From Tilletiopsis washingtonensis (taxonomy: Eukaryota; Basidiomycota; Exobasidiomycetes; Entylomatales): DNA of 64,000 nucleotides. The stretch covers positions 345,935 to 409,934 of the forward strand of contig NW_020312020.1 in the NCBI RefSeq assembly GCF_003144115.1. Direction: 5' to 3'. A program made the translations under genes and the position numbers. Below are positions 39,559 through 62,924 of the stretch, piece by piece (position 1 is the stretch's first letter; each line of letters begins with the position of its first letter). The notes under the pieces are model-generated. The model was not told the DNA's origin and did no database searches. It worked only from the letters and a program-made list of their open reading frames with translations.

Positions 39559-39694
39559 CGCCGCCGCCGGCCGCGCACCGCCCAGGCAGACCCGCTCCGC
39601 TCGATCCCAATTTTATGTCACCAAGCCCCTCGCTGTATCATATCCGCCCTCGCCACCACTCAAGCGCGTCTCTGTGTAGCTGTGCATTGCGCCC

Positions 39695-42600: not shown

Positions 42601-44624
42601 CGGCAGCGCGCTTTCGAGCCGCGCACCTGCGCTCACAAGCAGAAGCATGGCGCGCGAGAAGCTCTCATCCTCGGAGAGCGTGGCTGAGCGTGCGGCGTCG
42701 GTGATGAAGGCGTCTCGTTGAGCAAGCGCTCGGTCTGCGGCACGGCCGCGAGCCCGCGCTGCGGCCGCTTCCAGCTGCACGGCACGCACGAGGATGCCCG
42801 CTGCGTCTGGCAGCGACGGCACCACAAGTGCACCAGCGGTCAGAATGTGTGGCGCGACGCCGGCGGCGCGGGGCACGAGGCACAGAGGCGCGAGCGACTC
42901 GCTCTCCGCTTGCTCCAGAGAACTGACGAACGCAGTCCACTCGCGCCGCAGCGCGGCTTCGTACGCCTCGACTTGCAGCGCTCCCGTCGACGGATCGCGC
43001 TCCAGACCGACACCTGCGCCGACGGTTGCGGCGACCTCTTCTTGCAGAGATGCGTAGCGCGCATCGGGTGAGAGTACCGCGGGCCGAGGCGCCTCGGGCG
43101 AGATCGACGCCTCGAGCCGGTCGAGGTATGCGTCCAACACAGCCGGCAGATGCTCTAAGAAGCGGCCGCCGTGGAAGAGGCGGGGCACAAGGAACTCTGA
43201 TAAGTCGGCGCCGGCGTCTTGCAGGGCAGCGTCGAACGCAGCGCCGTGAAGTGGCGGATGGCAGGGCTGTGTGGAGCAAACTTGCCAGCCGCGCGCCTCG
43301 TCGCTCGTCGCCAGCTCTGCAGCGTCGGTCTGCTCGCTCTCGTCGACGGCGAGCGAGGCAAGCAGCGGCTCGCCCTCACCCTCCCACAGGCCCCACAGCG
43401 TCGACGGCGCGCCCTCGTCGAGCCACGCATCGCAGAGCGACGCCCTGCGCGTTGCCTCGCCCTCTTCGCGCGCCCACAGCAGCGTGACGTCGGCCACGGC
43501 TGCCGCGCCGTGCGTCTCCTCAGTGAGAGCAACGTCGTAGGCCAGGAAGAAGCGGCGCGCGCTCAGCGGCGCATGGACGAGCAGCCGGATGCCGCCATCG
43601 GTGGCGTAGGCCTTGAGCAGCGGACGGGCGCCCGGCGCAAAGGCCTCCAGCGCCTCGCCTGCGGCCGACGAGTGCGCGGCCGACGAGGCCGGCAGCTCGA
43701 TCTCGCGCACGCACGTGCATGAGACGAGGTCCCAGATGCGCAGCCGCGCGTCGGCCGCAATGCTGAACGCCAGCGAGCCGGCGTGGTGCGGCAGCTCGGT
43801 GCCGGCGCTCCGCACGAGCGCGGTGCTGGAGGCCGGCGCGGCGCGCGTCACGCCGGCGAGTGCGAGGGTGCGCTGGCCGCCGGCGCTGGGCGGCGCACTG
43901 GCGGCGCTCTTGGCGGGAGTCGTGCCGCTGGCGCCGGCCGGAGCGGCGCGCGAGAAGAAGCGCGACACGGAGCGCAGGAAGGAGTGCGCCCGCAGCGCCG
44001 TCGTCTTCCACTGGTCTGCACGGCGCGGCGCTCAGCATCGCGCACACGCCACGCACGCGGAGCCCACTCACCCTCGAAGAGGCCGCTGCCGTCGCCGCGG
44101 CGCGCCTGCTCGGCGAGCACGAGGCCGGCGTCGCACTGCAGCAGCACGCAGCCGGCGTGCACGGCCCACATGCGCTCGATGCCCGGCAGCGCCAGCTCGG
44201 AGCACGCCGGCGGCGGCAGCGGCGCGGCGGCGGCGGCGGGCGCGGCGAGGGCGGCGAGCGGCAGCGACACGCGGTGCAGCGCGCCGGCCGAGGCGGCGAG
44301 GAGGTGCAGCATGCCGTGCGCGCCGTCGGCATACAGCGCCGGCGCCGCACACACGGGCGCCACGAGGCGCACATGCAGCACGCGGCTGCGGCGCGCGGCG
44401 ACGAGGCGCAGCTCGAGCGTGCCCGGCGCGGCGGCGAGCGTGCGCAGCAGCAGCAGCTGAGCGCCGGGCAGCACGAGCGCGGCGCCGAGCGGCTGGGGCG
44501 GCGCATCAGCCTCGCCCGGCGGCGGCGGCGGCGGCGGCACGGACGAGGGCACGCCGACGTCGGCCGCGCCTGCCGCGCCGGCGAGGAGCAGCAGCGGCGC
44601 GTAGCTCAGGTGCAGCGGCGCCAT
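39695..44624 (-). CDS. Nucleoporin Nup120/Nup160 (Y-complex)
   Basis: Exons (minus): 44624..44072, 44015..41142, 41084..40201, 40147..39695; 1587 aa. Nup120/Nup160 is a core member of the Nup84/Nup107 Y-complex of the nuclear pore. The N-terminal half reads as a beta-propeller (FSIAADARLRIWDLVSC is a WD-like blade). The C-terminal half is helical, with FHGGRFLEHLPAVLDAYLDRL, FASLALAYPSERTTELHHRVF and MYQHAHRLGELQQRL, then LMDWFRSNKPDVLVQACVRCGLTDEAL near the end, all fitting Nup160. The last 50 residues are highly charged (Arg/Glu). In the last exon a 51-nt segment at 40057..40007 looks like an in-frame intron, so the protein may be 17 residues shorter. It shares a 290-bp divergent region with MEX67. 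Confidence 0.85.
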
Positions 44625-44914
44625 GGCGGGCGCGGGCGCAGGCGAGGGCGCAGCAGCGGCAGGCAGAGGGCAGAGCGGGCCGGCAGGCAGGCGGGATGAG
44701 TGGGAGTGGTAGCGAGAGAAGAGCAGGAAGCACGACGGCGCGTCCGTGGCAGCGCGAAGCCGGCCAGGCAGCGTGGGAGCAGCAGCGTCACGTGTTGCGT
44801 GCCGTGGGAGCAGCGAGCGCAGCGCTTGGGCGCGACTTGGCCGCGCTCCGCCTGCGTCTGCTGGCTGCGCGTGCGCCGCTCGCGGCCTTGCCTCTGCTCC
44901 TCCCACTCCGCAGC
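44625..44914. promoter_or_regulatory. Bidirectional promoter of NUP120/NUP160 and MEX67
   Basis: 290 bp separate the two divergent ATGs. The region is GC-rich with CT-rich flanks (CTTGCCTCTGCTCCTCCC before MEX67). It must drive both genes unless one has a remote promoter. Confidence 0.6.
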
Positions 44915-47419
44915 ATGCCCGCCGCCGACGCCTTCATCAACCCGCTCACCGGACAGCCGGCCGTGGCGCAGCCGTCGCTCGGCGCACGCATCGCCGGCAG
45001 CGCGCCGCGCACCACGCCGCCGCGCCGCGGCGCGCGTGCCGGCGGCGTCGCCGGCGGCGCCCTCAAGCGCGCCGGCCTCATCGACGAGGACTCGGGCATG
45101 CGCGACGCCAGCGGGCCCTCGCGCCGCGGCGGCGGCGGCGCAGCCAAGGGCGGGCGTGCGGCGGGCGGTGCGGGCGGCGGAGCGGTGAGTGGCCGCCGTG
45201 TGTCGAGCTCCACGGCCTCGCGTCCCGACTGACCACGCCGCATGCAGGCTCGCGAGCGAGCCAACCCGCTCGCACGCCCGCCGCCACGCACGCCGTCGTC
45301 GCGCCCCGGCGGCAGCGGCGGCGCCGGCAGCTCCGGCGCGCAGGCCACGGGCGTCGTGTACGGCATCCGCGGCAGCGCCGCGGGCGCGGGCGCGCCGGGC
45401 AAGGGCAAGAACCGCGTCGTGGGCGAGGCACAGGGCGCGCCCGCCGTCAACGCCAAGACGGCCGGCGTGCTGCGGCAGTTTCTCGCGAGCCGCTGGAGCG
45501 AGCAGGCGCAGTTCCTCAACCTCGAGGTGAGTGCCACGCCGGGCGCCTGGCCGCCGCACACGCATGTGGAGGTGCCGTGCGCCCAGGCGGGCGTTGCGCA
45601 AGCTCTGGGCTGACCGACATGTGCGCCAGGCGATGGCCGAGGACCCCATCCTGAAGCGTGCAGAGCTGCGCCCTCCCGGCGCGCCTGGCGCGCCACGCGA
45701 CCTCGGCAGCGTCATCTGGAAGCTCTGCGCCGATGCGTACCCCAACGTGCGTGATGCGCAGCAGCCCGCGCGCGCCGCGCCATCTCACCCGCTGTGCCTC
45801 TGCAGTGCGTCACCATCTCCCTCGCGAAGAACGACTTCAAGACGCTCGTGCCTGTCGGCACGCTGCCGCAGTTCCTTCCGCGCCTCAAGGTCAGCCGTGC
45901 GGCCGCCCGGCGTTGTGCTCCTGCGTAGCTCATCCTCTCTGCGCATCAGAATCTCTCGCTCGAGGGCAACGACCTCAAGTGGACGCGCGACCTTGTCTTC
46001 TTTGCCTCGTCCAAGTCACGCGCCACGCCGCGCTTCGAGGCGCTGCACGAGCTCATTCTGCTCGACAACCCGATGCAGCAGAATGCCTGTGCGGCAGGCA
46101 ACGAGGCTGGCTACCGCCAGGAGGTCCTGGCGCGCTTCGCCGATCTGACGATGCTCGACAAGCAGCCAGTGTCGGAGCAAGAGCGCGAGACGGCGCGCCG
46201 CAGCAAGGGCAGCAATGCAGCTCCGCCGGCCGTCACTGCCGGCGTCGAGACAAGAGTCTTCCCCGTGGCCATGGGCCCTGCCTTTCACTCGCCGGAGAGC
46301 GGCGACATCCCGGCACAGTTCCTGCAGAAGTGCGTCGTCTGCTGTGTACGTCTCCGGCACACACGCTGACAAGGCGGACTGCAGGTTCTTCTCTCTGTAC
46401 GACACCTCGCGCGCCGACCTGCGCCCGGCATACGCCGCCAACGCCACCTTCTCCGTCGTGCAGCTCAACGCCATTCCGCCGAGAGCCAGGGCTGCGGGCT
46501 ACCAGTCGTCGCCCTCGCTGCCGCGCCAGCGTGATCTCAACTGGCGAGGCTACGCTACCGTGCCGTCCCACAACATCATGCAGCTTTCCAACCGCCCGGC
46601 CACCAAGGGCTTTCCGCGCGGGCCCAACGCCATCATCGGCACGCAGGCAAAGCTGCCGCGCACGATCCACCCGCTCACCGACCCGAGCAAGTTTCTCGTC
46701 GACTCGTGGCTGCTGCAAAACGCGGCACTGGGCGCAAAGATCAACGCGCCCACCGCACAGCACGGGCACGCGCTCAAGCAGCAGCACCCCCCTGTGCCCG
46801 AGCCGGATGCCGTCTTGTTCATCAGTGTGCAGGGCGAATTCCAGGAAGGTGAGCTGCGCACGAGGCCGAGAGTCCGCCTCACGCTGACGCCCAGTCTTCA
46901 GCGCCGTCCCAGGGCGTGCGCTCCTTCACGCGCACCTTTCTCGTGGCGCCCGCCGCGCCTGCCTCGCCGTGAGCACTGCCCGCAGCGGGTTCGTGCTGCC
47001 ACAGCCTGCTGACGCCGGCCGTGTTGCACAGTGCCGCAGAGTCGGGATGGCCGTGCATCATCGTCTCCGACCAGCTCACGATCCGCAACTACATGGGCAC
47101 CAAGGCTTGGGCGGCAGATGCGCTGCCAGTCGAGCAGGCATCGGGCGCCGGTGCCAGTGGCACAGCTCCTGCGCCTTCGTCCGCCACGGCAGGCACTGCC
47201 GAGCTGCCGGCCCGGCTCCGAGACGTGCAGCCGCAGCCCGGCCTCTCGGCCGCGCAGCACGACCTCGCGCTCCAGCTGAGCGCCAAGAGCGGCCTCACAT
47301 ATCCGTTCGCCGTGCTGTGCCTAGCTGAGAATGCCTGGGAGGGGCAGCAGGCATGGCAGAGGTTCGAAGAGCTCAAGGCGGCCGGCGCCATCCCCGCCGA
47401 GGCCTTCGCAGGGCCCTAG
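44915..47419 (+). CDS. MEX67: mRNA export receptor MEX67/NXF1
   Basis: Exons: 44915..45184, 45248..45526, 45630..45746, 45806..45889, 45950..46329, 46385..46848, 46902..46968, 47032..47419; 682 aa. MEX67 carries mRNPs through the nuclear pore as a heterodimer with Mtr2. The N-terminus is Gly/Arg/Ala-rich and disordered. Leucine-rich repeats follow (VTISLAKNDFKTL, NLSLEGNDLKW, LHELILLDNPM). The NTF2-like domain starts at YRQEVLARFADLTMLDKQP and includes the substrate-loop block FVPs-like FFSLYDTSR, VRSFTRTFLVAP and CIIVSDQLTIRNY. The C-terminal UBA-like TAP-C domain begins QHDLALQLSAKSGLTYPFAVLCLAENAW. Exon joins are all in phase. The 67-nt exon 7 restores RTFLVAPAAPASP then AAESGWP. Confidence 0.93.
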
Positions 47420-47635
47420 TCCAGCGCGTCGTCCGCGCCCGCCCCGCATTCCTCTGGCCCTCGCAGCTGCACAGCGTGTGCCCGTCTCCACATATCCGCA
47501 TCCACTACGCGCCCGCGCCATTTCTGGCACAGCCAGCTCTCTTAATCACAGCATTCTTCCCGTGCCTCGACGAGTGTCCTACGCGTGCATTGCGAGACCG
47601 TGTGCGCTGCAGCGGTCTAGTTGCCTGGTGCGAGT

Positions 47636-49870
47636 CTAGTACGCCGATGCGCGTCCCTCCTTGCGCGAGTCGCTGGCGGCAAAGACCTTGGCCTTGCCCG
47701 GCGGGCCCTGCTCGCGCATGACTGCCTGCACCTCGGCGACGGCCATGTTGATGTCGACCATGTCGACGTCGTGGCCGCGCGCCCGAAGAGCCTCCACGAG
47801 CTCCTCGTTAATCGTCGTCTCGGCCGACACGGACGCCGGCAGCAGCTGGTGGTGCAGCCGCGGCCGCTCGATGGCGGCGGAGAGGTCCATGCCCCAGTCG
47901 AGATTGTAAAGCACCTGGGCGACAGCTCCGAAGATGCGCGAGCCGCCCGAGCCGCCGATTGAGAGGAAGAAGGAGCCATCCGGGTGCTCGATCTGCCAGG
48001 AAGCGACACGTCAGCAGCACGCTGCCGCGTGCACGTGCAGTCCACTCACAATCGTCGGCGACGTGCTGCTCAGCGGCCGCTTGCCCGGCGCAGGGTAGTT
48101 GAAGGGGCTGGGTCGCAGGCCAAAGGCATTCGGCACGCCAGGCGTCGAGGTGTCGTCCATCTGAACAGGCACGTCAGCACATGCGGCGACGCCGAGCAGC
48201 GGACAGCTCACCTCGTCGTTGAGGATCACGCCCGTGACTGGGTCGAGGACACCGCTGCCAAAGATGAGGTTGACGGTGCTCGTCAGCGCCACAGCCTGGC
48301 CGTTCATGTCGACGGTGCTGAGGTGCTGCGAGGGGGCAGTCAGCATGTGGGCGACGGGTGCGCGCCGGCGCGCGGCGGCTCACCTGCGTGCCGTGGTCGT
48401 CGGTGATGTCGAACAGCGGCTCGTAGTACTCGAGGCGGTGCGTGCGGTCGTCGTCGATGCGGCCGCGGATGCGCTGCGCCTCGTGCATGCTCGGGATCTG
48501 CGCGACGACGCGCAGGCTCGACGCGTTGAGGAACGCGGGGTCGCCGATGTGCGTGCGCTGCGCAAAGGCAAACTTGCTCGCTTCGACGAAGCGGTGGGCC
48601 GAGAGGCCGTCGTCGGCGCCGTCGCGCTTCCACTGCGGGTACAGCGCGGCGACGTTGAGCAGCGTGAGCAGCGGGCCGCCGCACGCGGGGGCCGGCGCCG
48701 TGTAGACGGTGCGCTCGCCCCAGCGGCCCTGCAGCGCCTCGCGCTCCTCGACGCGGTACTCGGCCAGGTCGCGCAGCGTGAGGATGCCGCCGGCGTTCTG
48801 CACCTTGGCGACGAGGGCCTGCGCGACGGGCCCGTGGTAGAAGGCGTCGGCGCCGCCGGCGGCAATGGCCCGCAGCGTCTCTGCGTACGCCGGGCGGCGC
48901 ACCGTCTCGCCCGCCTGCAGCAGGACGCCCGTGTCGGGGTTGACAAAGACGTCGGACCACTCGGGCAGGTCGTACATGTACAGGCTGCCGAAGAGCTGCG
49001 CGGCAAGTCAGCATGCGGCGTGGAGCATGCCTGTGGGCGCGACCACCCACCTTCAGACGCCGCGCCAGCTCGCGGCTCACGCGCGCCGACTCGGCGAGGC
49101 GCACGCTCGGCGCCACGAGGCGCGCCCACGGCAGCGAGCCCCAGCGCCGGTGCGCCGCCCACAGGCCCGCCACCTCGCCGGGCACGCCGACGCTGAGCCC
49201 GCCGAAGCGCGCGTCGCCGGGGCGCCCGGCGTACATCGTCGCGTTGGCCGCGCGCGGCGCCGTCTCGCGGAAGTCGATGACCGTCGTGCGCGAGCAGTGC
49301 TGGCGCCGCGGCAGCCGCCGGTGTGCTGCTGCGTCGGCGTGCTCGGCGGGCGACGAGGCAGTGGCATTGCCCGCCGCGCCGCACGGCACGGGGTCGCGCA
49401 CGAGCATGAAGCCGCCGCCGCCGATGCCCGACGAGAACATGTTGAGCGTGCCGACGCAGAACGCCGTCGCGATGGCCGCGTCGACGGCCGTGCCATTGTC
49501 GCGCAGCACTGCGGAGCGCGCGGCGTCAGCATGCTTGGCAAGGCAGCGGCGGCGGCGGCGACGCCTCACCGTCGACGCCGACGTCGGAACACACGCCGTT
49601 CTCGCTCGCCACGGCGCCGCGGCGGCCGCGCGCCAGGTGCGGCGTGCCGTTGAAGCGCCCGCGCGCCCAGCCGGCGTGCTCGCGGCGCTCGGCGCGCTCG
49701 CGGCGCACGACGAGCACGACGAGGAGCAGCAGCAGCGCCGCCGCGGCCGCCGCCAGCAGGCGCCGCAGCAGCGTCTCGCACGCCCGGCGCCGCGGCGGCG
49801 CCGCCCGCGCGGCGCGCGGCGACGGCGGCGGCAGCAGCGCGCTGCGCTCGCCCGGCGGCGCGGCGGACAT
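47636..49870 (-). CDS. Gamma-glutamyltransferase (membrane-anchored)
   Basis: Exons (minus): 49870..49570, 49508..49051, 48995..48384, 48325..48212, 48160..48050, 47992..47636; 650 aa. GGT cleaves the gamma-glutamyl bond of glutathione and its conjugates. A single hydrophobic anchor near residues 35-56 ([18 protein letters not shown]) makes it a type II vacuolar or surface protein. Family blocks follow: [34 protein letters not shown] and [10 protein letters not shown]. The catalytic Thr of the small subunit lies in HGTQHLSTVD, at an exon junction. [20 protein letters not shown] and [12 protein letters not shown] complete the active site, and GGSGGSRI and RLHHQLLP follow. The residues for maturation and glutamate binding all appear present. 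The first in-frame ATG giving the anchor was chosen. Confidence 0.93.
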
Positions 49871-50873
49871 CGGCGACACGGAGGCAGGGGACGGGGCGCC
49901 AGCTGCTGCTGCGGCGGCGGCGCTGCTGGGCGATGTGCTGTCGTGCTGCTGCTGCGGCGGCGGCGGCGGCGGCGGCGTGCGATGCGACGATGCGGCGATG
50001 CCGGCGCTGATGGATGCGGCGAGGGTTGTGGAGGAGCGGATGCTGCACGATGGACGCTGGCGGCTGCGCTCTATGTCTGTCGCTGGGCAACGGCCGCGCG
50101 CGCCGCGCGGGCTTGCGGCCGAGAGCAAGGCAAGCCCCGTCGCGGCGGCCAGGGGCGCGTCCGCCTCGATCTCGCCAGCCGCAGCCGCGGCGAGCGACCG
50201 CAGCGCATGCGCACCGCCAGCGACTCGCCGGCAAGGGCCAGCACGAAGCAGCGAGTGCAGAAACAGCGCCAGCGGCAGCAGCGCTGTGCCCGCCGCGCTG
50301 GACCGCGGCCGCCCCGGCATCCTGCGCTGCTGCTCCTGCTGCGGTGTCAGTGTACGGCAGGCGAGGCGGCGCGAGCAGCGTCGTCCGGCCCCTGCAGCGT
50401 CAGCTGCCCTGCGCTCTGGCAAGTGTACAGCTGGCATCTTGCTGCACCTGCCTCTGCCGCCAATGAGCATGCAGCATGCAGCATGCAGCATGCAGCATGC
50501 ACACGAGAGACCGCATCCCGACGCTGACGCTTGCCCGGGCCAGTCTTGCTCGCCGCCACGCCCGATGCGGCGCTCTGACTCGCCCGGCAGCGGCAGCAGC
50601 AGCAGCAACGTCTGCCACCCACCGCTGCAGCGCAGCCAGGCGGGCCCAGCATCCAGAGGCAGCCCAGCGTCGACTAGCCTTCAAGACGGCAGCGTCTGCT
50701 GCTCCCGCCTCTTTCGAACCACCACCTCCGCCCGCTGCTTTCCTTTGTGTGGCACATCTGCCGCCGCGCACCCCTCGCTCGTCTGCCGCCGACGGAACAA
50801 GCGGCGCCGAAGTCGCCACCCTCCTGAACGCGTGACAGACCGGGGCTCGCGCCTTGTCGCTGCATCCAGCACC
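49871..50873. other. Divergent region, GGT gene and copy B
   Basis: 1 kb between divergent starts, with short GGC/GCT runs at 49,900-49,980 and a perfect five-unit heptamer at 50,467-50,501. No gene recognised. Confidence 0.5.
50467..50501. repeat. Heptamer tandem repeat GCATGCA x5
   Basis: Five perfect units of GCATGCA, each containing the palindrome GCATGC. Lies 373 bp before the ATG of copy B and about 600 bp before that of the GGT gene. Confidence 0.9.
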
Positions 50874-53447
50874 ATGCAGCGCCCACTTGACGATACATTC
50901 CCTTGGGACCGCCCACTTTTCACCGACGATGCATTCGAGGCCAGGCTCTTCGGCGAGCCCGCGGAGGCGTACTCTCCCTCTGGCTCCCGCCATGTCGTCA
51001 TCCGCCTTCCGCCCGCCGTCAGCGACGCCTCTCTGCCTCCGCCCGCAGATGCCGCGCTGCTGCGCCTGGTGCGGCTGGAGCAGGCCGCCGCATTCGGCAG
51101 CGCGTGGCACTATCCTCACGGCCGCTCCCGGGCCGAGACGCTGGAATTTCGCCGCCAGGCACGCGAGGCGGAGCGGCACGGCGCCCTGCTGCGGCTGCTC
51201 GGCGTGAGCCTGACATCCTCGGGCGTCCGCTGCGGGTGCGTCTCATCTCCTCGCTCTCCCCTCGCTGCCGCAGCTGCCGATACGCGCGCGGCCTGTGGCA
51301 GTGCGCAGCAGCGCGTCAGATGCGCCGCCGTCCGGCCGCGGCCGCCGTCGTCGTCGCCCGAAGAGCTCCTACTCGAGGCTGCGCGCTGCGTCGAGCGCTG
51401 GGCCGAGTCTCAGACCTCCACCACCGAGTGCAGTCGCCGTCTGACCCTGAGCGTCGAGCAAGGCAGCATCGTCATGGCTCTGTATGATGCCAACGTCCAG
51501 CTTGGCTCTGATGGACGCATATGGCCTTCCCCGGAGCGGTTCTGGCGCCAATACGACATCTGGATCCCCTCCTGGTTCGAAGCCAACGGCCCAGTCATCA
51601 ACGCTATCCTCACACTGGTCTCCGTTGCGCAGAGCTCTCCGTCGTCACCGCCGAGTCCGCCTCTACGGCTCGTCCAGCACGACAGTGCAGCGCGTCGCGG
51701 CCGTGCGCACCTCTGGGACCTGGTTGTGCCTGCCTACGTGCTCTTCCAAGGCGAGTGGGGCTTGTGCGTCGGCTCTGCCCTTCCCTTGCTGACTTGCGTC
51801 TGTGGCTAGGCGACGAGGCAGTGGCTTTCATTGAAGTGGACAATCGCGACCGGACAGCGTTGGCGCGCACCACACAGCCAAGCGTCGGGCCGTCCGAGAC
51901 GACGCTTCTCAAGGAGGACAGACACCTCATACAGCTTTGTGCACCTGTGCGGTGCAGATGTCGCGTACGGTGCAGTACTGGGCGACTTCGGGCGTGCGTT
52001 CATGCCCTTCGAGCTCCATGCGGGCGACGAGGGGCGTCATCATCTGTCGTTCGCAGACGAGGCCGTCTGGACAAGAGTTCTTCCGACCCACGCGCCGCAA
52101 AGGCGGAGCGTCCAAGGTTCGTCGTCGCAAGTGCAGTGGTGCTCGGGGGCAAACATCATCATGTCGCTTGTCAAGTGGGCGCTCTTTGCCGCGCACCAAC
52201 ACGGGGAGCACGGAGCGCCCCTCGCTCAAAGTGTGCCCTTGGAGGAGCGTCCAGGCGCGGAAGACTTGTTCTCTGCCGAGCTGCGCAGTCGTCTGCAAGC
52301 TGCGCGGCAAAAGGAGGAAGACAGCACTGGACCGCCGCGCAAGCGAGTACGCTCCGAGGCACCTGAGCTGCCCGCTGCGAAAGAAGAGGGCAACATGAGC
52401 GCATCCACAAGCGCCGCACTCTTAGACGCTGATGCACCTCCGAGGGCGTCAAGCAGCGTCTCAGCGCACGTCGGCGTGGACGATCACGCCGCCTCGACGA
52501 CGGGCACAGCAATCCAAGCTCTCTCGTCCGGGCCAGGTGTCCGTGAGAGAGATGCAGAGCACGCAGGACAACAGGGGCGCAAGGCCGTGACACCCGACAC
52601 CGCAGGATCCCAAGCGCCGGGCAGTCCTCCCGTTCCGGCCGTGAGCGCCAGCGACACCGAAGCAGATGCGCCAATGCGAGACGGTGGTAGTGCGCGACGG
52701 TTCATCTACGCAGGTTGGCTCCCGCATCTGGTGGATGACCTCTTTGAGTTCTATCCCGGCCGCATGTCGTCCCACCTCAGCGAGCCCGAGCCGGACCTGC
52801 CTCAGACCTACCTGCGCTCAGCGGCGCCGGCCGACGCCGAGCCGTGTGTGATCAAGGTGCCGTGCGCGCTGCCGTCGGACGACATCTACTTCTCCGACGA
52901 GGGCGAGTTCGACGAGGCCTTCAACGCCGTGCGCCTCCGGGAAGCGCGCGAGAAGATTGCGGTTCTTGCTGCCGACAAGGACGCCGAGCAGCGCCGCCTG
53001 CTGCAGCGCGAGGTGGCGGCGTACGAGGCGCTGGCGGCGCTGCAGGGCACGGCCATTGCTAATCTGCTGTACGTCGGCCCGCTGCGTCTGCGCCTGCGCG
53101 GCGACATGGATTGTGCGCTGGTCATCGACAACGAAGGCACGCCGCTCGATACGCTCGACGCCTCGGCCGTCGCGGACATGTCGCCGGCGGAGCTGCCAGC
53201 GGCTGTCGAGCACGCCCACGCCCAGCTGCACGCGCACGGCTGGTGCCACGGCCAGGTGCAGCGCTGCAACATGCGGCTCTTTGCCGACACCAAGAGCGTG
53301 CGCCTTGTGGGCCTCGAGTATGCCGAGCGCACGGACAGGGCGGCGGACCATGCGGCCGAGATGCGCGAGGTGCGGGTGCTGCTCGACGAGTGGCTCGGCA
53401 AGGTCGGCGAGGCGCGGGCACGTCGCACGGCGCACAGAACCAAATGA
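50874..53447 (+). CDS. Kinase-like family protein, copy B (pseudokinase, apparent frameshift)
   Basis: Proposed exons: 50874..51235, 51320..51750, 51810..53447. The N-terminal module matches copies A and C: RLVRLEQAAAFGSAWHYPHG, LTSSGV, AARCVERWAES, WFEANGPVINAIL, AYVLFQG. The kinase-like part keeps the ATP-site lysine (PCVIKV) and the hinge-like LRGDMDCALVIDNEG. But the catalytic loop reads HGWCHGQVQRCN, with Gln where copy C has Asp, and the later Asp is Gly (LVGLEYA). Near 51,931-51,941 the frame that encodes EVDNRDR and EDRHLIQ must shift to the one that encodes FVHLCGADVAYGAVLGDFG, compared with copy C. So the gene is either broken, mis-sequenced, or spliced in a way I do not see. Intron 1 (84 nt) is a multiple of three and uncertain; intron 2 has a GC donor. 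Confidence 0.65.
51751..51809 (+). other. GC-AG intron of copy B
   Basis: Donor CCAAG|GCGAGT, branch TTGCTGACTT, end TGGCTAG, 59 nt. Copy C has a GT-AG intron at the same codon and phase (55043-55098). The protein on both sides, VLFQG then DEAVAFIEV, aligns with copy C. Confidence 0.7.
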
Positions 53448-54084
53448 TTGCTGCAATAAGAATGATGTTGCAGCCAGGCGGAGCACCGTCGAGTGTCGAC
53501 GACCGTGGTCAGGTGCCTGGCACCTGCACCTGCGACTGCGACTCTGGCCTACGCGTCTTTTGAAGTCCCAGAGTGAGAGTGGGCTGAACCCCGACGCTGC
53601 GACAGCCAGACGAGAACGACAGACTCAGAGTAGAGTCCAGTGCGGTCTAGTCGAGTGGCGACTCAGAGTGAGTCCAGTGCAGTCTAGTCAAGTGGCGAGT
53701 CTTGGCTGTGACCAGGCCGACAGAGGGCAACGTCCGTTCTCACGCCAGTCTAGCCCCACTTTGCTTTCCTCTCAGCCGCTTCCGGCGTCGCGGCCGAGTG
53801 CAGCCGCCGACCGCAGCGAGTGACCGTTGGACCCGCTCGGCACTCTTACTGCCTGAGCCTCCCACCACGATTCCATCCGCAACCCGACCCCATCCGACAA
53901 TCTCCCGCGCTGCCCGACAGTCGCGCCTCCGCCACAACTCGCGACCCATGCGCTCGCGCCCCTTCTGTCATCCCCCGCCACAGGCTCGCATGCCCACATA
54001 CATCGCTCTCCGCGCTGCCGCTGCACTCGGTCCCTCTTGTAGCCGTCACTTCGTCATTGCGCCCGCGCCCGCGCACCACCGAGC
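53448..54084. other. Intergenic region between copies B and C
   Basis: 637 bp with a two-unit tandem repeat at 53,622-53,702 and a pyrimidine-rich promoter-like stretch at 53,750-54,080. The base composition is less GC-rich than the average. No gene recognised. Confidence 0.5.
53622..53702. repeat. Two-unit tandem repeat of about 38-40 bp
   Basis: Units start GACTCAGAGT at 53,622 and 53,660. They share GAGTCCAGTGC, GTCTAGTC and AGTGGCGA with a few differences. Lies about 400 bp before copy C. Confidence 0.8.
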
Positions 54085-54889
54085 ATGAGCAACGCCGGCG
54101 CGGAGGCGCCGCCCCCCGCGGGCGCGAGCACCTTCTCCGCCACCAGCGAGGCCGTGTTCGACGAACGAGACTCAGAGGATGTGGGTCAGGAGCTCGAGGT
54201 CCGGCTGCACGGTGCTGCTTCCAGCACTCTCGACCCTGCGGCAGCACGCACGGAGGATGCTGCGCGCTCTGCTTCGTCGCATGCTGCACCGCCGCTGCGC
54301 CTTTTGCAGCTCGCGCAGGACCCCACCTTCCTCTATCGCCAGGACAACACGCCGAGCGATGAGAGACGTGCAGGCGGCATCGGTGGCTGCACCAAGCCCA
54401 CCGACAACCAGGAGAAGATGCTGGAGACCCTCGGTGTGGAATTGGCTTCCTCGGGCGTGTGGTGAGTGCTGCTTTCTTGTGGTGGATGCAGAGCTGACCC
54501 GGCTTTCGTTGCGTCCAGTCCTGATGGCGCCGATGCCTCCGTGCCTCCTCTGCGCCGGCCCGCCGCGTCGATCTCGTCGTCCGACGTGCAGCAGCCCTTT
54601 CGCGAGGCGGCTCGCGACGTCGAGACCTGGGCCCAGACCACCGGCGAGTCGTCCGCGCGAGACGCTCCGGCTCCGACGACCTCCGCCGTGGCCTTGCGCG
54701 TCGAGGCGGGCGACATTGTCATGCGCCTGAAGAACACCACCTGCCTCATGGGGCCGAGCCCCAAAGCGCACGCTCTGCCCGGCCCGGCACAGCGCATGTC
54801 CGAAGCGGACTGGACAGAGAAATGGTTCCGCGCAAACGGCCCAATCATCAATGGCCTGCTGGCGCTCACTGCGACAGCGCAGAGCCACA

Positions 54890-54920
<31 letters not shown>

Positions 54921-56477
54921 GGCGTCGTCATCGTCGTCGTCAGTTCGTCGCCCGCTGAAGCTCGTCGAGATCAGCGCAGCCGCGCAGCACGGCCGCGCGC
55001 CCCTGTGGCACCTCGTGCAGCCGGACCTGGTGCTCTTTGCGGGTGAGTAGTTGTAACGCGGCTGCGCATGCTTGCGGCATTGACGTTTTGCCGCGCAGGA
55101 AGCGAGGTTGTTGGAGGGATCTCAATCAAGAACCGCGAGCGCGAGGAGCTGGCTCCTGCGACCCGGCCGACACTTTCGCCCCTGCAGACCAGCAGCAACC
55201 TGCAAGAGACTGAGCGCAAGCTCCTTCACCAGCTCTTCGTGCAGACGGCGGGTCTCAACGTCGCATGCGCTGCAGTGCTGGGCGACTATGGCCGGGTCTT
55301 GATGCCGTTCGAGCTGCAAACCCAGGACCGCTCCTCTGTCGCCGCACACATCTCCTTTGCGAACGAAGGCGTGCGTGCACAGTATCTCGATCGTGCGACG
55401 GGACTGGAGCCGAGCGTGACATTGGCTGCGCCGCAGGTGAAGTGGCGCAAGGAACACAACCAGATCCTCTCAATCGTCGAATGGGCGCTCTACGCAGCCA
55501 AGAAGCACTTCGAGGAGCCGCCGCCCTTCGCTCGGTCGTTCAGGACGGAAGAGCTGCTGGAGGTGCGGCCGCTGCTGCCACCAGACGGGCATAAAGCGCT
55601 GCGAACGGAGGGAAAAGCGGCGGCGGAGGCAGCCGACGCCGGGCGCACTCGCAAGCGAGCTCGATCGTCCTCGCCGACACTTGCAGACCCCGGCAGCAGG
55701 CCGCCTAGTGGTGTCCCGACGAGCGGACTCGGCGACAGCACAACCATTGCGAGCGGCTCGTTGGTCGCTCGTGACGACGATATGGTTCCGTGGCAGGGTC
55801 TGCACGACCCGCAGAGGGGCCTGTTCCTCTACATCACGCTCTGCCCGCACTGGCAGAGCGACTTCGCGCGCGTCTACCGCGCGTGGCACTCGCCGCACCT
55901 CAGCGCGCCGGTCGCCGAGCTGCCGCAGCCGTACTTGCGCACCGCGCCGCCGCCCGACGCCACGGCCTGCGTCATCAAGACTGTGCGCGAGATCGACGAG
56001 GACGAGGGAGAGCTGTGGACGAACGCGGACGCGGCGAAGCTCGCACGGTGCGAACGAGCGGCCTACGCCGCACTGCAGCCGCTGCAGGGCGCGGCCTTGC
56101 CCCGCCTGCTGTACTGCGGCCCGCTGGAGCTGCGCCTGGATGGCCGCGTGCCTGTCCTTGTGCTCGAGCACGCCGGCACGGCGCTCAGCACACTCACGCC
56201 CGCCGCGGTGGCGGCGGCGGGTGTGCGCGACGCTGTTGTCGCGGTGCGTGCGGCCGTCGCCGCAGCGTTCAGCCAGCTGCACCGCCACGGCTGGTGCCAC
56301 AACGATGCGACGCTGTGCAACATGCTTTTTGACGTCCGCAGCGGCCGCGCGTGCATCATCGACCTGGAGAGCGCGGCGCCGTGCTGCAACGGCGCGGCGG
56401 AGTGTGTCGTCGCGGCCAGGGAGATGGAGGAGGTGCACGCCGAGCTCGACCTGTGGGAGGCCGAGGCCCGCGACTGA
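54085..56477 (+). CDS. Kinase-like family protein, copy C (intact)
   Basis: Exons: 54085..54461, 54519..55042, 55099..56477; 759 aa. N-terminal family module: LRLLQLAQDPTFLY, LASSGV, EAARDVETWAQ, WFRANGPIINGLLAL. A possible nuclease-like core follows: VQPDLVLFAG then GGISIKNRERE. CAAVLGDYGRVLMPFELQ and HNQILSIVEWALYAAKKH come next, then a basic linker (TRKRARSS). The C-terminal kinase-like domain begins after DPQRGLFLYITLCPHWQ. It has ACVIKTVRE (ATP-site Lys), ALQGAALPRLLYCGPLEL, VLVLEHAGTAL (hinge), HGWCHNDATLCNML (catalytic Asp at 56304-56306) and CIIDLESA (metal Asp). No named family is recognised with certainty; the loop resembles aminoglycoside-phosphotransferase or RIO-like kinases. The substrate is unknown. 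Confidence 0.8.
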
Positions 56478-56876
56478 TACCCTCACCATGCGCTATCCCC
56501 CAATGACACACGTCTGAGGCGACGGAGCGCGGTGAGACACAGATGGATGCGACAACGCAGGGAACAGCATGCTCGGCGAGAAGGAAAGAGGAAGCAGCCG
56601 CCGCCGCGCGCCGCGGCGGCGCGCCACGCGGCGCACGAGCCATGCCCGTCACCGCCGCGCGCGCGCGCCCCTGTCATCGTGCTCCCTGCTCTGACGCGGC
56701 TGCCCTGGCGCGGCGTGGCCTGACTTCCGACCCTCACCTCCCGCATCTCCTGCTCGCCTCGCCTGCCTCGCACACCACCTGCGCCCGTCTGCCTCCCGCA
56801 CTGCGCACGCCGGCCGTGCTGCCCTGCCCCGCGGCGCACAGGCGTGCCGCTGCCTGCGCGCGCCGCCGCCTCCGCC
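56478..56876. other. Intergenic region, copy C to SEC10
   Basis: 399 bp, with a GCCGCGCGC-rich patch at 56,600-56,640 and a CT-rich stretch of short TCGCCTC units before the SEC10 start. No gene recognised. Confidence 0.5.
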
Positions 56877-59800
56877 ATGGACGTGCCCGAGCTGGCACGC
56901 ACCGCCTCGCCGCGCCCGCGCGGCCACCGCCCGGCACCCGTGCTGCCCGGCGGCGCGGCGGCGCCGGTCTCGTCGCCGCCGCCGCCGCAGCCGCCGCAGT
57001 CGGGCCTCTTCCACGATGCGGCGCTCGACGATGTGTGCCGCATGCAGACGTTTGAGAACCAGGCGTTTGCGACGCGCGACTTTATGGCGGCGATGAGCGA
57101 GCGCCTCATCAGCCGCAGCAAGGCGGACCCGGGACGTGAGTGGCCGGCGTGTGGCGTGGCATCGGCGCCTGCGGCGGGCGGCGTGGCGTGGCCAGCGGTG
57201 CTGAACGGCACAGAGCATGGGCGGTGCTTGGCGGCGCAGAGCATGGGCGGTGCTGGGCGGCGTCCGGCGTAGCATGATCAGCGGTGCTGACACGCCGCCT
57301 GCCGCGCAGCGTTCAACCCGCGCCCCTTTATCCGGCAGTTCGAATCGTCCGTCGATCGCCTGCTCGCCCTGCGCGCCACCCTCACCGCGCAGGAGTCGGC
57401 CGAGGCGTCGGCGGTGCGTGTCTCCGAGTCGGCGTACGCGTCCAAGCTGCGCGACCTCTCGTCCAACTTTGCCAGCGTCGAGTCGTCCTTCGCCGGCCTC
57501 GAGGAGCGCTTCACCGACGTCGGGCGCACGGCGCTGCAGACCGGCGAGCAGCTGCAGACCGTCGACCGCCTCAAGACGCGCGCTGCCGAGGCGAGCGACC
57601 TCATCGAGTACTACTACCAGTTCGCCCGCGGCGACACGGCGCGCCTCGACCGCCTGCGCAAGGAGGGCGGCCGTGAGGGGCGCCTGCGCACTGCCGTGAT
57701 CGCACGGCGCCTGGCGGCCATCGCGCGGGAGGTAGACATGCCCGGCGCCGAGCAGGTGAGTGGCGCCGGTCCGACTGGCCCGTCCGGCTGCTCACGCCGC
57801 AGCGCAGACGCGCGACACCATCGATGCGTTTGCGGAGCGCTTCGAGCGCGACATGCTCAAGCTCTTTGACAAGTTCTACCGCAAGTCGGATCCCAAGATG
57901 ATGTCGCACATTGCCAAGGTGCTGCAGAACTTCAACGGCGGCCACAGCTGCGTGCAGATCTACGTCAATCAGCACGACTTTTTCATCTCAAAGGACCGTA
58001 TTGGCGGGCGCGAGGGCGTCGCGACGAGTCCGATGTGTGTTGCGACCAGGCGCGCCTTGTGATGTCTCCTGCTGACGCACGCACGCAGATGGAAGAGCCT
58101 CACCGATCCCGATGCGCCGCCGCCGCGGACTGAAAAGGGCCTCGACGAGCTCTTTACGGAGATCCGCCAGACGGTCGAGATCGAGGCGCAGATCATCGGC
58201 GCCGTCTTTCCGTCGCCGCTGCTCGTTATGACGACGTTCCTGCAGCGCGTCTTTGCGCAGAGTGTGCAGGCCTACGTCGAGGTGCTCATGGACAAGGCGT
58301 CCGAGGTCGGCGCGGCGAGCAGCGGGCGCGATGCGGCGGGCACAGGTGGCGATGCCGGGCCTGGCGCAAGCAGCCTCGCGTTCCTGCGCACGCTGCACTT
58401 GGCGCGCACCATGGCTCTCTCGCTGGTGGCTGAGCTGAAGATGTACGACTTCCGCTCGAGCGGCACTGCTGCCGCCGCGAAGAGCGCCTTCAGCCTGCAC
58501 GAGACAGGCAGGCTTCTCGGCGGCTCGACTACGCTCGACGCGCTGGGCTCGGCCGCCCACGCCAGCAGCGGGAGTGCGCTTGGCGGCATGCTGGATCAGG
58601 CCGTGGAGGAGCTCTTTGTGCCGTATATGGAGGGGGTCAAGTACGTCGACCGCGAGGGCAGATCGCTCACGGACCTGTACGCGGCGTACTTGCTGCCCTT
58701 CTCGAACTACCACGTACGCACATGCGGCCCTGCGAGCCAGTCCTTGATGTTCACATCGCTCTGCAGCGCGCCACGCATCAAGTCAAGACGTCCACCATCT
58801 TCGACCGCGTCCGGGCACAGGTTCAAGCGGCTTCGATTGCTGGTGGCAGCGCCGGGGCTGGCGCAGCAGCGGCGCCTGTTCCGGCCAAGACGTCGGGCTT
58901 TGGCTTCAGCAAGCTGTCTGGCTTCGTCGACCGCGCCCGCGGAGGCACCACTGCGGCACCCGCTGCGGTGCCAGCCGCGCTGGGGCAAGACGCGGCTGCG
59001 GCGGTCGCTGGTGTCGAGGGCGAGCAGGTCGAGGAGAGCGACGGCGAGCTGAGTCTGGAGGTGGCCGAACGCATGCTGCGCTGGCACGCGGAAGCCATTG
59101 GTCGTTGCGTCGACCTGAGCACCTCCTCGGAAGTGTCAGTGCATCGTCACGCGCCGAGCTGCTTGACGCTGACGCACCGCAACCCAGCCCGAAGAACGCG
59201 TTTGCGCTTCTCAAGGTCCTCGCTGAAGCCTTCATCAAGTCGTACCTCGAGACTGCCCTCGCCTCGGCGCAGAAGCTCGTCGACTCGCAGGACGTGCGCG
59301 GCGCCACGCTGCAGGACATCAGCCCGCTGGGCGAGGTGCGGCAGGTCGAGCTGATCGTGCAGCTGTGGCAGCACTACGTGACGACCGCGCTGCTGCCGCT
59401 TGCCGGCTCGAGTGTCACGGTGCGCCGCGAGATGGCCATCTACAACAACCACTCGCTCCTGCGTGTCGAGGGCAAGTGCGATGCGATCTTGCAGAAGGCC
59501 ACCGACAGTGAGCAGGACGCAGGCATGCTGCAGCGGGCTCTGGCTGATCCCGCGCCGTCCAGACATCGTCGCCTATCTGGCTGCTCGCCTGGCCACACAG
59601 AAGCGCAACGACTATGCGCCCAAGAACGACGAGCTTGCCTTTGCGCGCATCAACACGGATCCGTGCGTCTCGTGCTGCGAGGCACTCGAAAAGGTGCAGT
59701 CGGTTGCGCGGGCGACCAACGGGCTTGGCGGCGGCAAGAATGCCGAGGCATTCCTGACCGAGGTCGGCGTCACGTTTCACGGACTGCTGCTCGAGCACCT

Positions 59801-60420
59801 CAAGAAGCACACGGTCAGCGCCGCCGGCGGCATCATGCTGGGCCAGTGAGTGTGCCTGGCGCGCATGCACGGCAAGCCCAGTCAGCTCACAGCCGCCCGC
59901 AGAGACCTGTCCGCCTACCAAAACGTGATCAGCACCTTTGGCATCCCAGCGCTGTCGGACCGCTTCGACATGCTGCGCCAGCTCGGCAACCTCTTGTGAG
60001 TGCGGGCTAGGCGTGATGCTGACCGTCGACTGACACGCCGGCGCCACCACAGCATCGTGCAGCCGGCCGTGCTGAAGTCGTACATGCGCGAGGCACACCT
60101 GGTGAGTGCGACGTCCTCTGCGTCTGCGCCTCGCTCATCGCGTTACCCTCGCAGGCGCGCATCGACGAGCGCCTGCTGCGTCCTTACCTGCTGCGCCGCA
60201 GCGATTACAAGGTGCGTGGCCCGGCCCGATCAGAAGGCACCGCATCTGACGCAGCAGACTCGCCCGCCAGGATGTGCGCGATCTCGACGTCGCCGACCTG
60301 GCGTCGCCGGCGGGCGCGGCAGAGCCAGTGGCAGCTGTGCACGTCGGCGGCAGCGAGGCGCGTCTGGCCCAGCTGATCGCATCCGTCACACCCGCCGCAC
60401 TGGTGTCCGGCGCCTCGTAA
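56877..60420 (+). CDS. SEC10: Exocyst complex subunit Sec10
   Basis: Exons: 56877..57135, 57310..57755, 57808..58034, 58089..58713, 58767..59134, 59188..59507, 59563..59845, 59903..59995, 60053..60101, 60155..60211, 60271..60420; 958 aa. Sec10 is part of the octameric exocyst that tethers secretory vesicles to the plasma membrane. Visible family blocks: PFNPRPFIRQFESSVDRLL, LIEYYYQFARG, VQIYVNQHDFFISKDRI, GLDELFTEIRQTVEIEAQII, FLQRVFAQSVQAYVEVLM, LVELKMYDF-like, LWQHYVTTALLPLAG, DPCVSCCEALEKVQ and, at the end, ISTFGIPALSDRFDMLRQLGNLFIV. The protein is largely helical. The joins at 58034/58089 and 59134/59188 were chosen for phase and family fit; other joins are firm. Intron 1 (174 nt) contains a two-unit AGCATGGGCGGTGCT repeat. 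Confidence 0.9.
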
Positions 60421-60500: not shown

Positions 60501-62924
60501 TCAGTCCTTGGCCTCTCCGCTGAGGCGCTCCACGCTGCCAAGCTTCTCCAGCTGCTCGGCAATGAGCTGCTGCTGGATGCGGAGCGCGCGTGCGCGGTCG
60601 CGCTCGCCCGTGCGGTCTCTGAATGGGGGGAGGTCAGCGTAGGCCATGCGGTGTCGCATCTGGTGGCGCACTTGAAGACGTTATCGAGCTGCTCGAGCTG
60701 TGGAGAGGCGCGGTGAGCCAGTGACACGCCGCGGCATCGCGCGCGGGCCACGCACCGGAACGCCCGCCGTCTCCGGGCATGCCCAGAGGACCCAGAAGAT
60801 CGACAGGAACGCAAAGACGCAGAAGAAGACGAACGCGCCGTACGACGTACCCTCCACGAGCGGAGGCGTGATCAACCCAACGGTGAAGTTCTGTGCCGCG
60901 AAGGAAGCGTGAGATGATAGCGCCTCGCTGACCGACACGCAGACGCACGAAGAACCAGTTGCTGAGCGTGCTCAGCGCCACGCCCTTTGCGCGCAGCGAC
61001 GAGGGGAAGATCTCGGCCGGCATGGCCCACGGCACGGGGCCCCAGCTGAGCCCAAACACGACCATGTAGACGAGCAGCATCGAGACGGCCACCCAGGCGT
61101 CGACCTGGTGGGCCGGCCAGTTGCTCGCAAAGCTGTGGATGGAGGCGGCGCTCAGCTGAGTGCGACGTGCGCTCGTTGTCGGCGCACTCACAGTGCCGTG
61201 AGGACGGCAGTGATCAGGAGGCACACCGTCGTGCCGATGCTGCCGAACGCCAGCAGCGGCTTGCGCCCGATCTTGTCGATGAAGAAGAACGAGAGGACGA
61301 CGCCGAGCAGCTGGCACAGGTTCGCCACGCCTGCCATGATGAGGGAGAGGTCGTAGCTGAGGCCCAGTGCAGCGAAGAGCGTCGGTGCGTACTGCGGAAG
61401 GGTCAGAGAGGGGTGACTAGCCGCATCGTGCTCATCCTCACGTAGATTAAGGCGTTGATGCCGACCAGCCTGCGCTCGGGGTCAGCTTTAGGCCGAGGAG
61501 CGGCCGGGGCGCACATACTCACTGCTGGAAGAACATGACGCACACGCCGACACCGGTGCGCCGCACACAGCCGGCGCGCAGGCAGTCGACCCAGCTCCAG
61601 AACTCGCGCATGAAGCCGTTGGCCCCCGGATGCCGCTCCTCGCGGATCTCGGCGTGCAGCTGTGCCTCGGCAAGAATGTCGATGAGCTCGGCCTGCACGA
61701 GGCTGTCGTGTGGCGGCCGGTTGCGCAGGCGCGCGAGCACGGCCAGCGCCTCGGTGCGGCGCCCGCGAGTGGCGAGCCAGCGCGGCGAGTATGGCAGAAA
61801 GTACACGCCCACCAGGAGCAGCAGCGCCGGTGCGATCTGCAGCAAGAAGGGAAAGCGCCATGCCCACTCGCTGTCCTGGCAGCCTTAGCAAGCGTCTCGT
61901 TGCATGCCTCGCGTGTCTCACCTGGCGATATTGCGCGAGCCGTAGGTGATCTGCAAAGGGTGAGTGAAAATGCAGCGAGGGCTGCTTGCGCACTCACGTC
62001 TGCAGAGAGTCAGCCGATGCGCACACGCTTTGGTGCCGAAGCGCTCACAGTATGCGACGCAGATGCCGAACACGATGCAGAACTCCTCGAGGCCGAGCAG
62101 CACGCCGCGAATCGACGGCGGCTGCGAGGGGATGACATGTCGTCAATATAGCGAGGCCTCCGGCGCTACGCTGAGGATCACACACCGAGATCTCGGACAC
62201 GTAGAGCGGCGCGACCATGCTCAGTGTGCCGATGCCGATGCCGCCGAGGAAGCGGCCGACGACGAGCATGGCATAGTTGACGGCGCCCTGCGGCACGGGT
62301 CAGCGTGCTCGGGCATGCGAGCGTTGCGGGGCGGCGACGCACCGTCTGGATCGCAGAGCCGAGCACGAACCACGCCACGCCGGCGAGGATTGCTGTGTGG
62401 CAGCCAGAGTGAGCATCGCCGCGCCCCACACACAGCACCGGCACGCACCGCCGCGGCGGCTGAAGCGGTCGGCCACGTAGCCGGCGCTCACGGCGCCCAG
62501 ACACGCGCCGAGCTGCAGCAGCGCCGTGAGGAAGCCCTTCCAGAAGCCGGCCGACGGGTGGCCGTCGGCGATGCGCGGCACGACGGCGATGAACTGCGGC
62601 ATGACGAGCGTGACGCTCACGACGCCTGCGCGGCGGGAGTGAGCAGCGCAGCGGCGGCAGGCATGCAAGCATGCACACCTTGGTCGTACTGCGCCGGCGG
62701 GTCAGCAGCAGCACTGCCAGGCAGCTGCCATGCACACTCACGCCGAAGAGCAGGCCGCCGAGACAGGCGACGGCGGCACAGAGCACGACGTGGGCGTTGG
62801 CCGCCAGCCCCGCGAGGCCCACGCGCCCGTAGGCATGGCGCAGGCGCTGCGGCTCGGCGGCGAGGGCGCGCAGGGCGGCCGCCGAGCTGTGCGGCGGCGG
62901 CGAGCGCCGTCCGGTGCTGTCCAT
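60501..62924 (-). CDS. MFS sugar-porter family transporter with microexons
   Basis: Fifteen exons (minus): 62924..62742, 62688..62679, 62625..62449, 62392..62343, 62287..62186, 62121..62049, 61999..61998, 61950..61922, 61870..61523, 61469..61442, 61391..61192, 61150..60949, 60890..60756, 60697..60672, 60618..60501; 560 aa. It is a twelve-helix sugar:proton symporter or facilitator of the plasma membrane. Signatures: LLFGYDQGVVSV in helix 1, GYVADRFSRR, the helix-4 block GRFLGGIGIGTLSMVAPLYVSEI, YYITYGSR, SPRWLATRGR, LVGINALIYY-like, IDKIGRKPLL, FGLSWGPVPWAMPAEIFPSSLRAKG and NWFFNFTVGLITPPL. The usual PETKG reads PETAG. The C-terminus is a charged helix. Joins are in phase throughout. The acceptor of exon 12 (61150) is weaker than the rest. 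The substrate cannot be told. Confidence 0.85.
61998..61999 (-). other. 2-nt microexon of the sugar-porter gene
   Basis: Minus-strand sequence reads CTCTGCAG|AC|GTGAGTGC. The upstream intron (62048..62000, 49 nt) has GTGAGC, CTGAC and TGCAG. The downstream intron (61997..61951, 47 nt) has GTGAGT and TTTGCAG. The AC completes a Tyr codon begun by T, giving VAYYITYGSR, the normal family sequence. One merged intron would leave the frame off. Confidence 0.72.
62679..62688 (-). other. 10-nt microexon of the sugar-porter gene
   Basis: Encodes Y-D-Q and the first base of Gly in the LLFGYDQG signature of helix 1. It lies between GGCGCAG and GTGTGC splice sites. Confidence 0.82.

What the first reader, a model, noticed from the sequence alone, without database searches (positions are those of the whole stretch)
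61951..62048. Two-nucleotide microexon between two minimal introns in a sugar-porter gene
Seen: minus-strand order is ...GCATACT|GTGAGC...CTGACTCTCTGCAG|AC|GTGAGT...CCTTTGCAG|ATCACC. Both introns (49 and 47 nt) have the size and signals of the other introns in the window. The 2-nt exon gives VAYYITYGSR, which is the expected sequence after helix 4 in this family; one fused intron shifts the frame. Exons of 1-3 nt are very rare in any eukaryote, so exon definition here must work by intron definition alone.
Basis: partly seen in the sequence, partly recalled or inferred. Interest (0 to 1): 0.8.

Follow-up and report, generated by a model that had tools for sequence, protein, structure and literature searches.

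The report
Two-nucleotide exon in fungal transporter gene
A sugar-transporter gene of an unidentified, probably fungal, genome seems to carry an exon only two bases long between two tiny introns; one- to three-base exons are rare but already known in plants and fungi, and RNA reads are needed to confirm this one.

Summary
On the minus strand: intron 62048..62000 (49 nt), exon AC at 61999..61998, intron 61997..61951 (47 nt), inside an intact 15-exon, 554-aa sugar-porter gene, 62924..60501. A gene finder trained without this gene returns exactly this structure, 2-nt exon included; the best parse without exons under 3 nt is 17 nats worse. The inner acceptor-donor pair is the best of 4,553 such pairs in the window, and 0 of 20,000 shuffles of the 98-nt stretch reach its score. 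Skipping the exon shifts the frame; including it gives VAYYITYG, which aligns without gaps to 10 prokaryotic homologues and the five PDB alignments shown. Likely mechanism: two ordinary short introns, each recognised by intron definition and removed one after the other, because two splicing complexes cannot sit two bases apart (inferred). No RNA evidence and no fungal orthologue could be reached. One-nucleotide exons are proven in plants and in Fusarium, so this is a new member of a known kind.

The parts
60501..62924 (-). sugar-porter gene, 15 exons, 554 aa; exons 62924-62742, 62688-62679, 62625-62449, 62392-62343, 62287-62186, 62121-62049, 61999-61998, 61950-61922, 61870-61523, 61469-61442, 61391-61192, 61132-60949, 60890-60756, 60697-60672, 60618-60501
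   Evidence: hand assembly, Pfam PF00083 383.1 bits over residues 50-515, gene finder trained without this gene gives the same exons
62049..62121 (-). exon 6 (73 nt), ends GCATACT in phase 1
62000..62048 (-). intron 6, 49 nt, GTGAGC...CTGCAG, branch-like motif GCTGAC whose A is followed by 10 nt
   Evidence: donor 5.75 (35th percentile of 81 other introns), acceptor 5.97 (78th), branch 7.10 (52nd)
61998..61999 (-). exon 7, two nucleotides (AC), completes the TAC codon of Tyr199
61951..61997 (-). intron 7, 47 nt, GTGAGT...TTGCAG, branch-like motif ACTCAC whose second A is followed by 10 nt
   Evidence: donor 7.39 (64th percentile), acceptor 6.55 (94th), branch 4.26 (17th)
61922..61950 (-). exon 8 (29 nt), begins ATCACC in phase 0 (ITYGSRNIA)
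62679..62688 (-). exon 2, 10-nt microexon (TACGACCAAG) of the same gene, encodes YDQ and the first base of G in LFGYDQG

Best explanation
The site is a constitutive, coding 2-nt exon (AC) between two minimal U2-type introns (49 and 47 nt) in a sugar-porter gene. Each intron carries its own donor, branch-like motif and acceptor and is recognised across itself (intron definition). U1 bound at the second donor and U2AF/U2 at the first acceptor would overlap, so the two introns are most likely removed one after the other: after either is gone, the two bases simply become the edge of a normal exon (TAC|GTGAGT, or CAG|ACATCACC). The product keeps the frame and the family's spacing at the end of transmembrane helix 5. 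Shown: sequence, frame, family spacing, strength of the four splice sites. Inferred: that the splicing happens, that it is constitutive, that it is sequential. Which intron goes first is not determined.
For: Gene finder trained from scratch on window 1..60399 (17 genes, 76 introns; target unseen) returns the 15-exon model with the 2-nt exon at 190.3; best parse with exons of 3 nt or more 172.9. With the training: 188.2, against 172.1 without the donor at 61997 and 170.2 without the acceptor at 62000. 0 of 20,000 shuffles reach the score of the inner site pair; first of 4,553 pairs in the window. No gap in residues 178-207 against 10 of 10 aligned prokaryotic homologues (2 of 12 fetched were dropped) nor within VAYYITYG in the 5 PDB alignments shown of 53 hits; these five are three proteins, STP10, GlcP and XylE. 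Profile score 355.2 bits with the exon, against 349.6 (donor GTCGCA), 346.6 (both introns kept) and 333.3 (donor GTGTTC). The same gene has a 10-nt exon supported by the conserved GYDQG. Precedents with RNA proof: APC11, CYP621A. In Arabidopsis an artificial 2-nt exon (TT in place of the 1-nt A) was spliced in correctly.
Against: No transcript data. No fungal orthologue in the collections reached, so conservation of the exon is untested. The gene finder also predicts exons of 3, 4, 5 and 9 nt elsewhere in the window with weak sites, so it can invent tiny exons; the case here rests on strong sites plus homology. It has no prior against very short exons; a prior of 1 in 100,000 would cost 11.5 of the 17.4 nats (my arithmetic). 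The profile margin over the GTCGCA form is only 5.6 bits. The branch motif of intron 7 is at the 17th percentile. Tiny exons can be spliced badly: the TT exon was mis-spliced in rice, and a 1-nt version of a potato exon was skipped in 33% of transcripts.
Confidence: 0.88

Rival explanations
1. One intron with a different, frame-keeping donor (GTCGCA at 62058 or GTGTTC at 62073) spliced to the acceptor at 61951, giving a protein shorter by 4 or 9 residues in helix 5.
For: Both keep the frame. The GTGTTC form is the best parse when the inner acceptor is forbidden (170.2 against 188.2). The GTCGCA form loses only 5.6 bits against the profile.
Against: Donor scores -6.59 and -0.70 against a median of 6.77, while a donor GTGAGC scoring 5.75 lies close by; profile scores 5.6 and 21.9 bits lower; the deletion falls inside a helix that is ungapped in 10 of 10 aligned homologues.
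Confidence: 0.04
2. The true gene has one 98-nt intron here and a sequencing or assembly error (an indel in a flanking exon) makes the 2-nt exon look necessary.
For: Only this one sequence is at hand and its read support was not seen. 10 of 95 predicted introns are 98 nt or longer, so the length alone is not abnormal.
Against: An error in an exon would not create an inner acceptor, branch-like motif and GTGAGT donor two bases apart: 0 of 20,000 shuffles. Residues 178-207, on both sides of the junction, match 10 of 10 aligned homologues without gaps.
Confidence: 0.04
3. The stretch is regulated by retention: keeping both introns adds 99 nt in frame without a stop, giving a 586-aa protein with a 33-residue insert at the end of helix 5.
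For: The unspliced frame is open.
Against: Profile score lower by 8.6 bits. A 33-codon open stretch is expected about half the time at 70% GC (my estimate from base composition, no call). Four usable splice sites would go unused. It could exist as a minor form.
Confidence: 0.03
4. A stwintron: one intron splits a splice signal of another, so that no exon lies between them.
For: Two introns lie head to tail with almost nothing between, as in stwintrons (abstracts seen).
Against: Both GT and both AG dinucleotides are intact and contiguous, and I found by eye no external donor across the inner intron that gives the right frame and keeps residue 199 (read; not enumerated by script).
Confidence: 0.01

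Closest known systems
One-nucleotide exon of Fusarium CYP621A (Nelson and Syed 2026, PMC12940212; parts 1 and 2 of 3 of the text read)
   Same: Fungal gene; tiny exon inside a conserved motif; restores frame between phase-incompatible exons; short flanking introns (139-nt stretch in F. graminearum).
   Different: One nucleotide, not two; ascomycete; shared by 20 orthologues and seen in 18 RNA reads, by that paper; here neither could be tested.
One-nucleotide exon of Arabidopsis APC11 (Guo and Liu 2015, PMC4674806; parts 1 and 2 of 3 read) and plant VPS55 (PMC8831610; passages)
   Same: Exon far below the size that exon definition could handle; one-after-another removal by intron definition proposed by Guo and Liu.
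   Different: Longer flanking stretch (422 nt in APC11); proved with constructs and RT-PCR; conserved in land plants. Replacing the 1-nt exon by TT worked in Arabidopsis and was mis-spliced in rice.
Microexons of basidiomycete P450 genes (Phanerochaete chrysosporium, PMC1184071; passages)
   Same: Frequent small introns (45-55 bp) and microexons.
   Different: Shortest exon reported there is 6 bp.
Two 3-nt exons in lipS of Dactylellina haptotyla (PMC5639578; one passage)
   Same: Exons of a codon or less in an intron-rich fungal gene.
   Different: Ascomycete (recalled), 3 nt each; the passage gives no RNA evidence for them.
Stwintrons (search listing and abstract openings)
   Same: Two head-to-tail introns that must be removed in succession.
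   Different: In a stwintron a splice signal itself is interrupted by the inner intron; here both introns are complete and two coding bases remain between them.

Membership tests
Ultra-short internal microexon (1-3 nt) | bounded by AG and GT with complete splice signals on both flanking introns | tested here: met
   own acceptor plus branch 13.1, own donor 7.4, upstream donor 5.7, downstream acceptor plus branch 10.8
Ultra-short internal microexon (1-3 nt) | needed to keep frame and protein family spacing | tested here: met
Ultra-short internal microexon (1-3 nt) | present in mature mRNA | not testable with these tools
   no RNA data held
Ultra-short internal microexon (1-3 nt) | conserved in orthologues | tested here: inconclusive
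MFS sugar porter (Pfam Sugar_tr PF00083) | profile match above the curated cut-off over the domain | tested here: met
   383.1 bits against a cut-off of 22.3, profile 2-452 of 452
Stwintron | internal intron interrupts a splice signal of an external intron | tested here: not met
   both introns have uninterrupted GT and AG and their own branch-like motif

The most novel reading that the evidence does not exclude
A constitutive 2-nt exon in an intron-dense, 70% GC fungal lineage (probably a basidiomycete), one of the smallest exons known in fungi, spliced by obligatory one-after-the-other removal of two minimal introns whose total flanking length (98 nt) leaves no room for two splicing complexes at once. 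It would set a lower bound on how close two functional U2-type introns can lie, without any exon-bound helper.
Probability: 0.6. Interest if true: 0.55.

Novelty: new member of a known kind. Interest (0 to 1): 0.45.

Why it matters
If confirmed, it adds a 2-nt case to the handful of 1-3 nt exons with evidence, with flanking introns near the minimal size, which makes the order of intron removal and the steric limit of the spliceosome testable with a short minigene. It also shows how automatic annotation could break this transporter: without the 2-nt exon my gene finder deletes nine residues of helix 5 or shifts the frame of exon 8.

Tried and rejected
The first run of the home-made gene finder ran away (567 exons in one gene) because introns cost too little; it was replaced by a penalised version and then by one trained from scratch without the target region. 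In one search one table row, for the GTCGCA donor, was placed two bases off; the correct value (-6.59 at 62058) is. The runs with exons of at least 11 nt (160.6, 162.0) also lose the 10-nt exon 2, so their drop is not due to the 2-nt exon alone; I rely on the runs that forbid only exons under 3 nt or single sites.

Stwintron, U12-type and GC-AG readings of the junction were considered by eye and gave no frame-keeping alternative with good sites. Origin by duplication of one intron from the other: similarity of introns 6 and 7 is at the 43rd percentile of 3,081 intron pairs, and neither has a match elsewhere in the window longer than 15 bases (blastn-short, E up to 10). So no sign of tandem duplication or of a repeated intron within this window.

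Hidden microexons in the 11 other predicted introns of 86 nt or more: none has a comparable inner pair (best sum 6.7 against 20.46). The second-best pair in the window (4057-4058, AC GTGAGC, 18.96) is the start of a predicted exon whose coding letters read YVSDRLG in another transporter, not a second 2-nt exon. It shows that a good acceptor can be followed by GTGAGC by chance.

Relatives: the search for related loci in viral contigs gave nothing; a DNA pattern for GPVPWAM gave 1 viral contig and 25 prokaryote contigs, none encoding a relative by tblastn at E 1e-3 (38 loci searched). No tRNA, no Rfam match at gathering threshold.

Full report
What was checked. The minus strand was read from 64000 to 60000 and the transporter gene was assembled by hand from splice signals and frame. 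The model has 15 exons from ATG at 62924 to the stop ending at 60501 and encodes 554 residues without an internal stop. Pfam gives Sugar_tr at 383.1 bits over residues 50-515, profile 2-452 of 452. In the PDB, 53 distinct sequences match, led by the plant sugar transporter STP10, bacterial GlcP and XylE.

The site. Exon 6 ends ...GTC GCA TAC T in phase 1 at 62049. Intron 6 is 62048..62000, 49 nt. The next two bases, AC, at 61999..61998, complete the TAC codon of Tyr199. Intron 7 is 61997..61951, 47 nt. Exon 8 starts ATC ACC in phase 0. The position is the end of the fifth transmembrane helix, not the fourth: Tyr199 follows directly on the sixth of 13 hydropathy peaks (residues 180-198), of which I take the second to be a loop because the family has 12 helices (recalled), and the stretch aligns with XylE's fifth helix (helix numbering recalled).

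Independent prediction. A simple semi-Markov gene finder was written for this window. Trained on 18 other predicted genes with 81 introns, it returned exactly the hand-made structure, 2-nt exon included. Because that training had started from the target gene, it was repeated from scratch on window 1..60399 only, seeded with 12 long open frames (of 44 candidates) and generic splice motifs. It found 17 genes and 76 introns, then returned the same 15 exons for the unseen target at 190.3 nats. Forbidding exons under 3 nt costs 17.4 nats and gives a 6-nt exon with exon 8 in another frame (protein of the same parse). In the version, forbidding only the donor at 61997 costs 16.1 nats and forbidding only the acceptor at 62000 costs 18.0 nats and deletes nine residues of helix 5. 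The finder has no built-in penalty for very short exons, which favours the reading. It also predicts exons of 3, 4, 5 and 9 nt in other genes. Those have weak sites: own donors -0.5, -1.1, 5.2 and 0.4 and own acceptors (with branch) 4.9, 4.0, 1.3 and 9.1, against donor 7.4 and acceptor 13.1 here. They are probably false, and they are a reminder that such a finder alone is not proof.

Chance. Of 4,553 AG-N(1-12)-GT pairs on both strands of the window the pair around AC scores highest (20.46). The runner-up (18.96) is the start of an ordinary predicted exon in another transporter, where coding letters happen to read GTGAGC. When the interior of the 98-nt stretch was shuffled 20,000 times with dinucleotides kept, 5,060 shuffles had some inner pair with both halves at least 42 nt, and none reached the observed score. 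Of 18,246 sampled 104-nt stretches of the window itself, 2 held a pair as good; since the full scan finds only one, both must hold this site. Both introns have a CT[G/C]AC motif whose A is followed by 10 nt. In this gene 13 of 14 introns have a CTNA[C/G] motif in that region, at distances of 10 to 24 nt.

Frame and family. Skipping the exon shifts the frame, with the first stop after 511 residues; the printed stretch no longer reads as the family, though it was not scored. Keeping intron 6 alone or intron 7 alone also shifts the frame; keeping both leaves a 586-residue open frame with a 33-residue insert. Twelve plasmid-borne prokaryotic homologues were fetched out of 671 records with a match; 10 gave usable proteins. 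In all 10 there is no gap opposite residues 178-207 of the microexon form (three rows have a gap at residue 208). A profile of these 10 scores the microexon form 355.2 bits, against 349.6 (donor GTCGCA), 346.6 (both introns retained) and 333.3 (donor GTGTTC). The margin over GTCGCA is modest, but that donor scores -6.59 where the median of 81 introns is 6.77.

Mechanism. With introns of about 50 nt (median 56 of 95 predicted) intron definition is expected (established knowledge of fungi, recalled). Two bases cannot hold U2AF/U2 at the first acceptor and U1 at the second donor at once, so removal one after the other is the most economical scheme. Guo and Liu proposed a combination of intron definition and recursive splicing for the 1-nt exon of APC11, citing the 9-nt potato invertase exon, where the second intron goes first. 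This is inference: the order here is unknown. Their data also warn: an artificial 2-nt exon (TT) was spliced correctly in Arabidopsis but not in rice, and a 1-nt version of the potato exon was skipped in 33% of transcripts. How the pair of introns arose is unknown. The introns are not unusually similar to each other (43rd percentile of 3,081 pairs) nor repeated in the window. Nelson and Syed's idea of a base loss rescued by a cryptic exon could be tested with orthologues.

Place among known things. One-nucleotide exons are supported by RNA in Arabidopsis APC11 and plant VPS55 and in Fusarium CYP621A. [quoted passage not shown] Three-nucleotide exons are noted in Dactylellina lipS. Exons down to 6 bp are reported in P450 genes of Phanerochaete chrysosporium. 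Three searches of the open PMC library for phrases on 1- and 2-nt or smallest exons (15, 17 and 2 papers listed) showed no 2-nt exon in a fungus in titles or abstract openings. The library holds only open-licence papers and phrasing varies, so this is weak evidence of absence. I file it as a new member of a known kind.

What is not known. The organism is not identified: no genome is held and no tRNA or Rfam family was found in the window. Fungal, probably basidiomycete, is my inference from the intron style, eukaryotic gene content (MYG1, DUF4505, an elongation-factor GTPase) and recalled fungal sugar-porter sequences. No transcript and no orthologue from a fungus was seen. The claim 'spliced 2-nt exon' therefore rests on sequence alone, at about 0.88.

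Noticed in passing
window 62688..62679 (minus): The same gene has a 10-nt exon (TACGACCAAG) in the conserved LFGYDQG start of the transporter; other exons of 26, 28 and 29 nt also occur.
   Followed up: yes
window 3415..3430 and 3981..3998 (plus): A second MFS transporter gene (2697..4699) is predicted with 16- and 18-nt exons; own acceptors 11.7 and 10.7, own donors 4.5 and 7.3.
   Followed up: partly
window 12765..12769, 12872..12875 (plus), 33693..33691 and 29257..29249 (minus): Predicted exons of 5, 4, 3 and 9 nt with a weak donor or acceptor; probably gene-finder artefacts, though the last two lie in genes with DUF4505 and MYG1 matches.
   Followed up: partly
window 57195..57262: A 26-nt tandem repeat (2.6 copies) overlaps a predicted 36-nt exon with a weak donor (0.7) in a 12-exon gene (56877..60420); the exon model there may be wrong.
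   Followed up: no
window 53622..53698 and 5081..5144: Tandem repeats of 37 nt (2.1 copies) and 19 nt (3.4 copies).
   Followed up: no
window 54085..56477 and 52764..53447: Two neighbouring predicted proteins share kinase-like stretches (HxHGWCH); the larger matches Pfam Kdo/WaaP kinases weakly (25.9 bits, cut-off 21.3), the smaller matches no Pfam family. They look like paralogues, one perhaps a fragment.
   Followed up: partly
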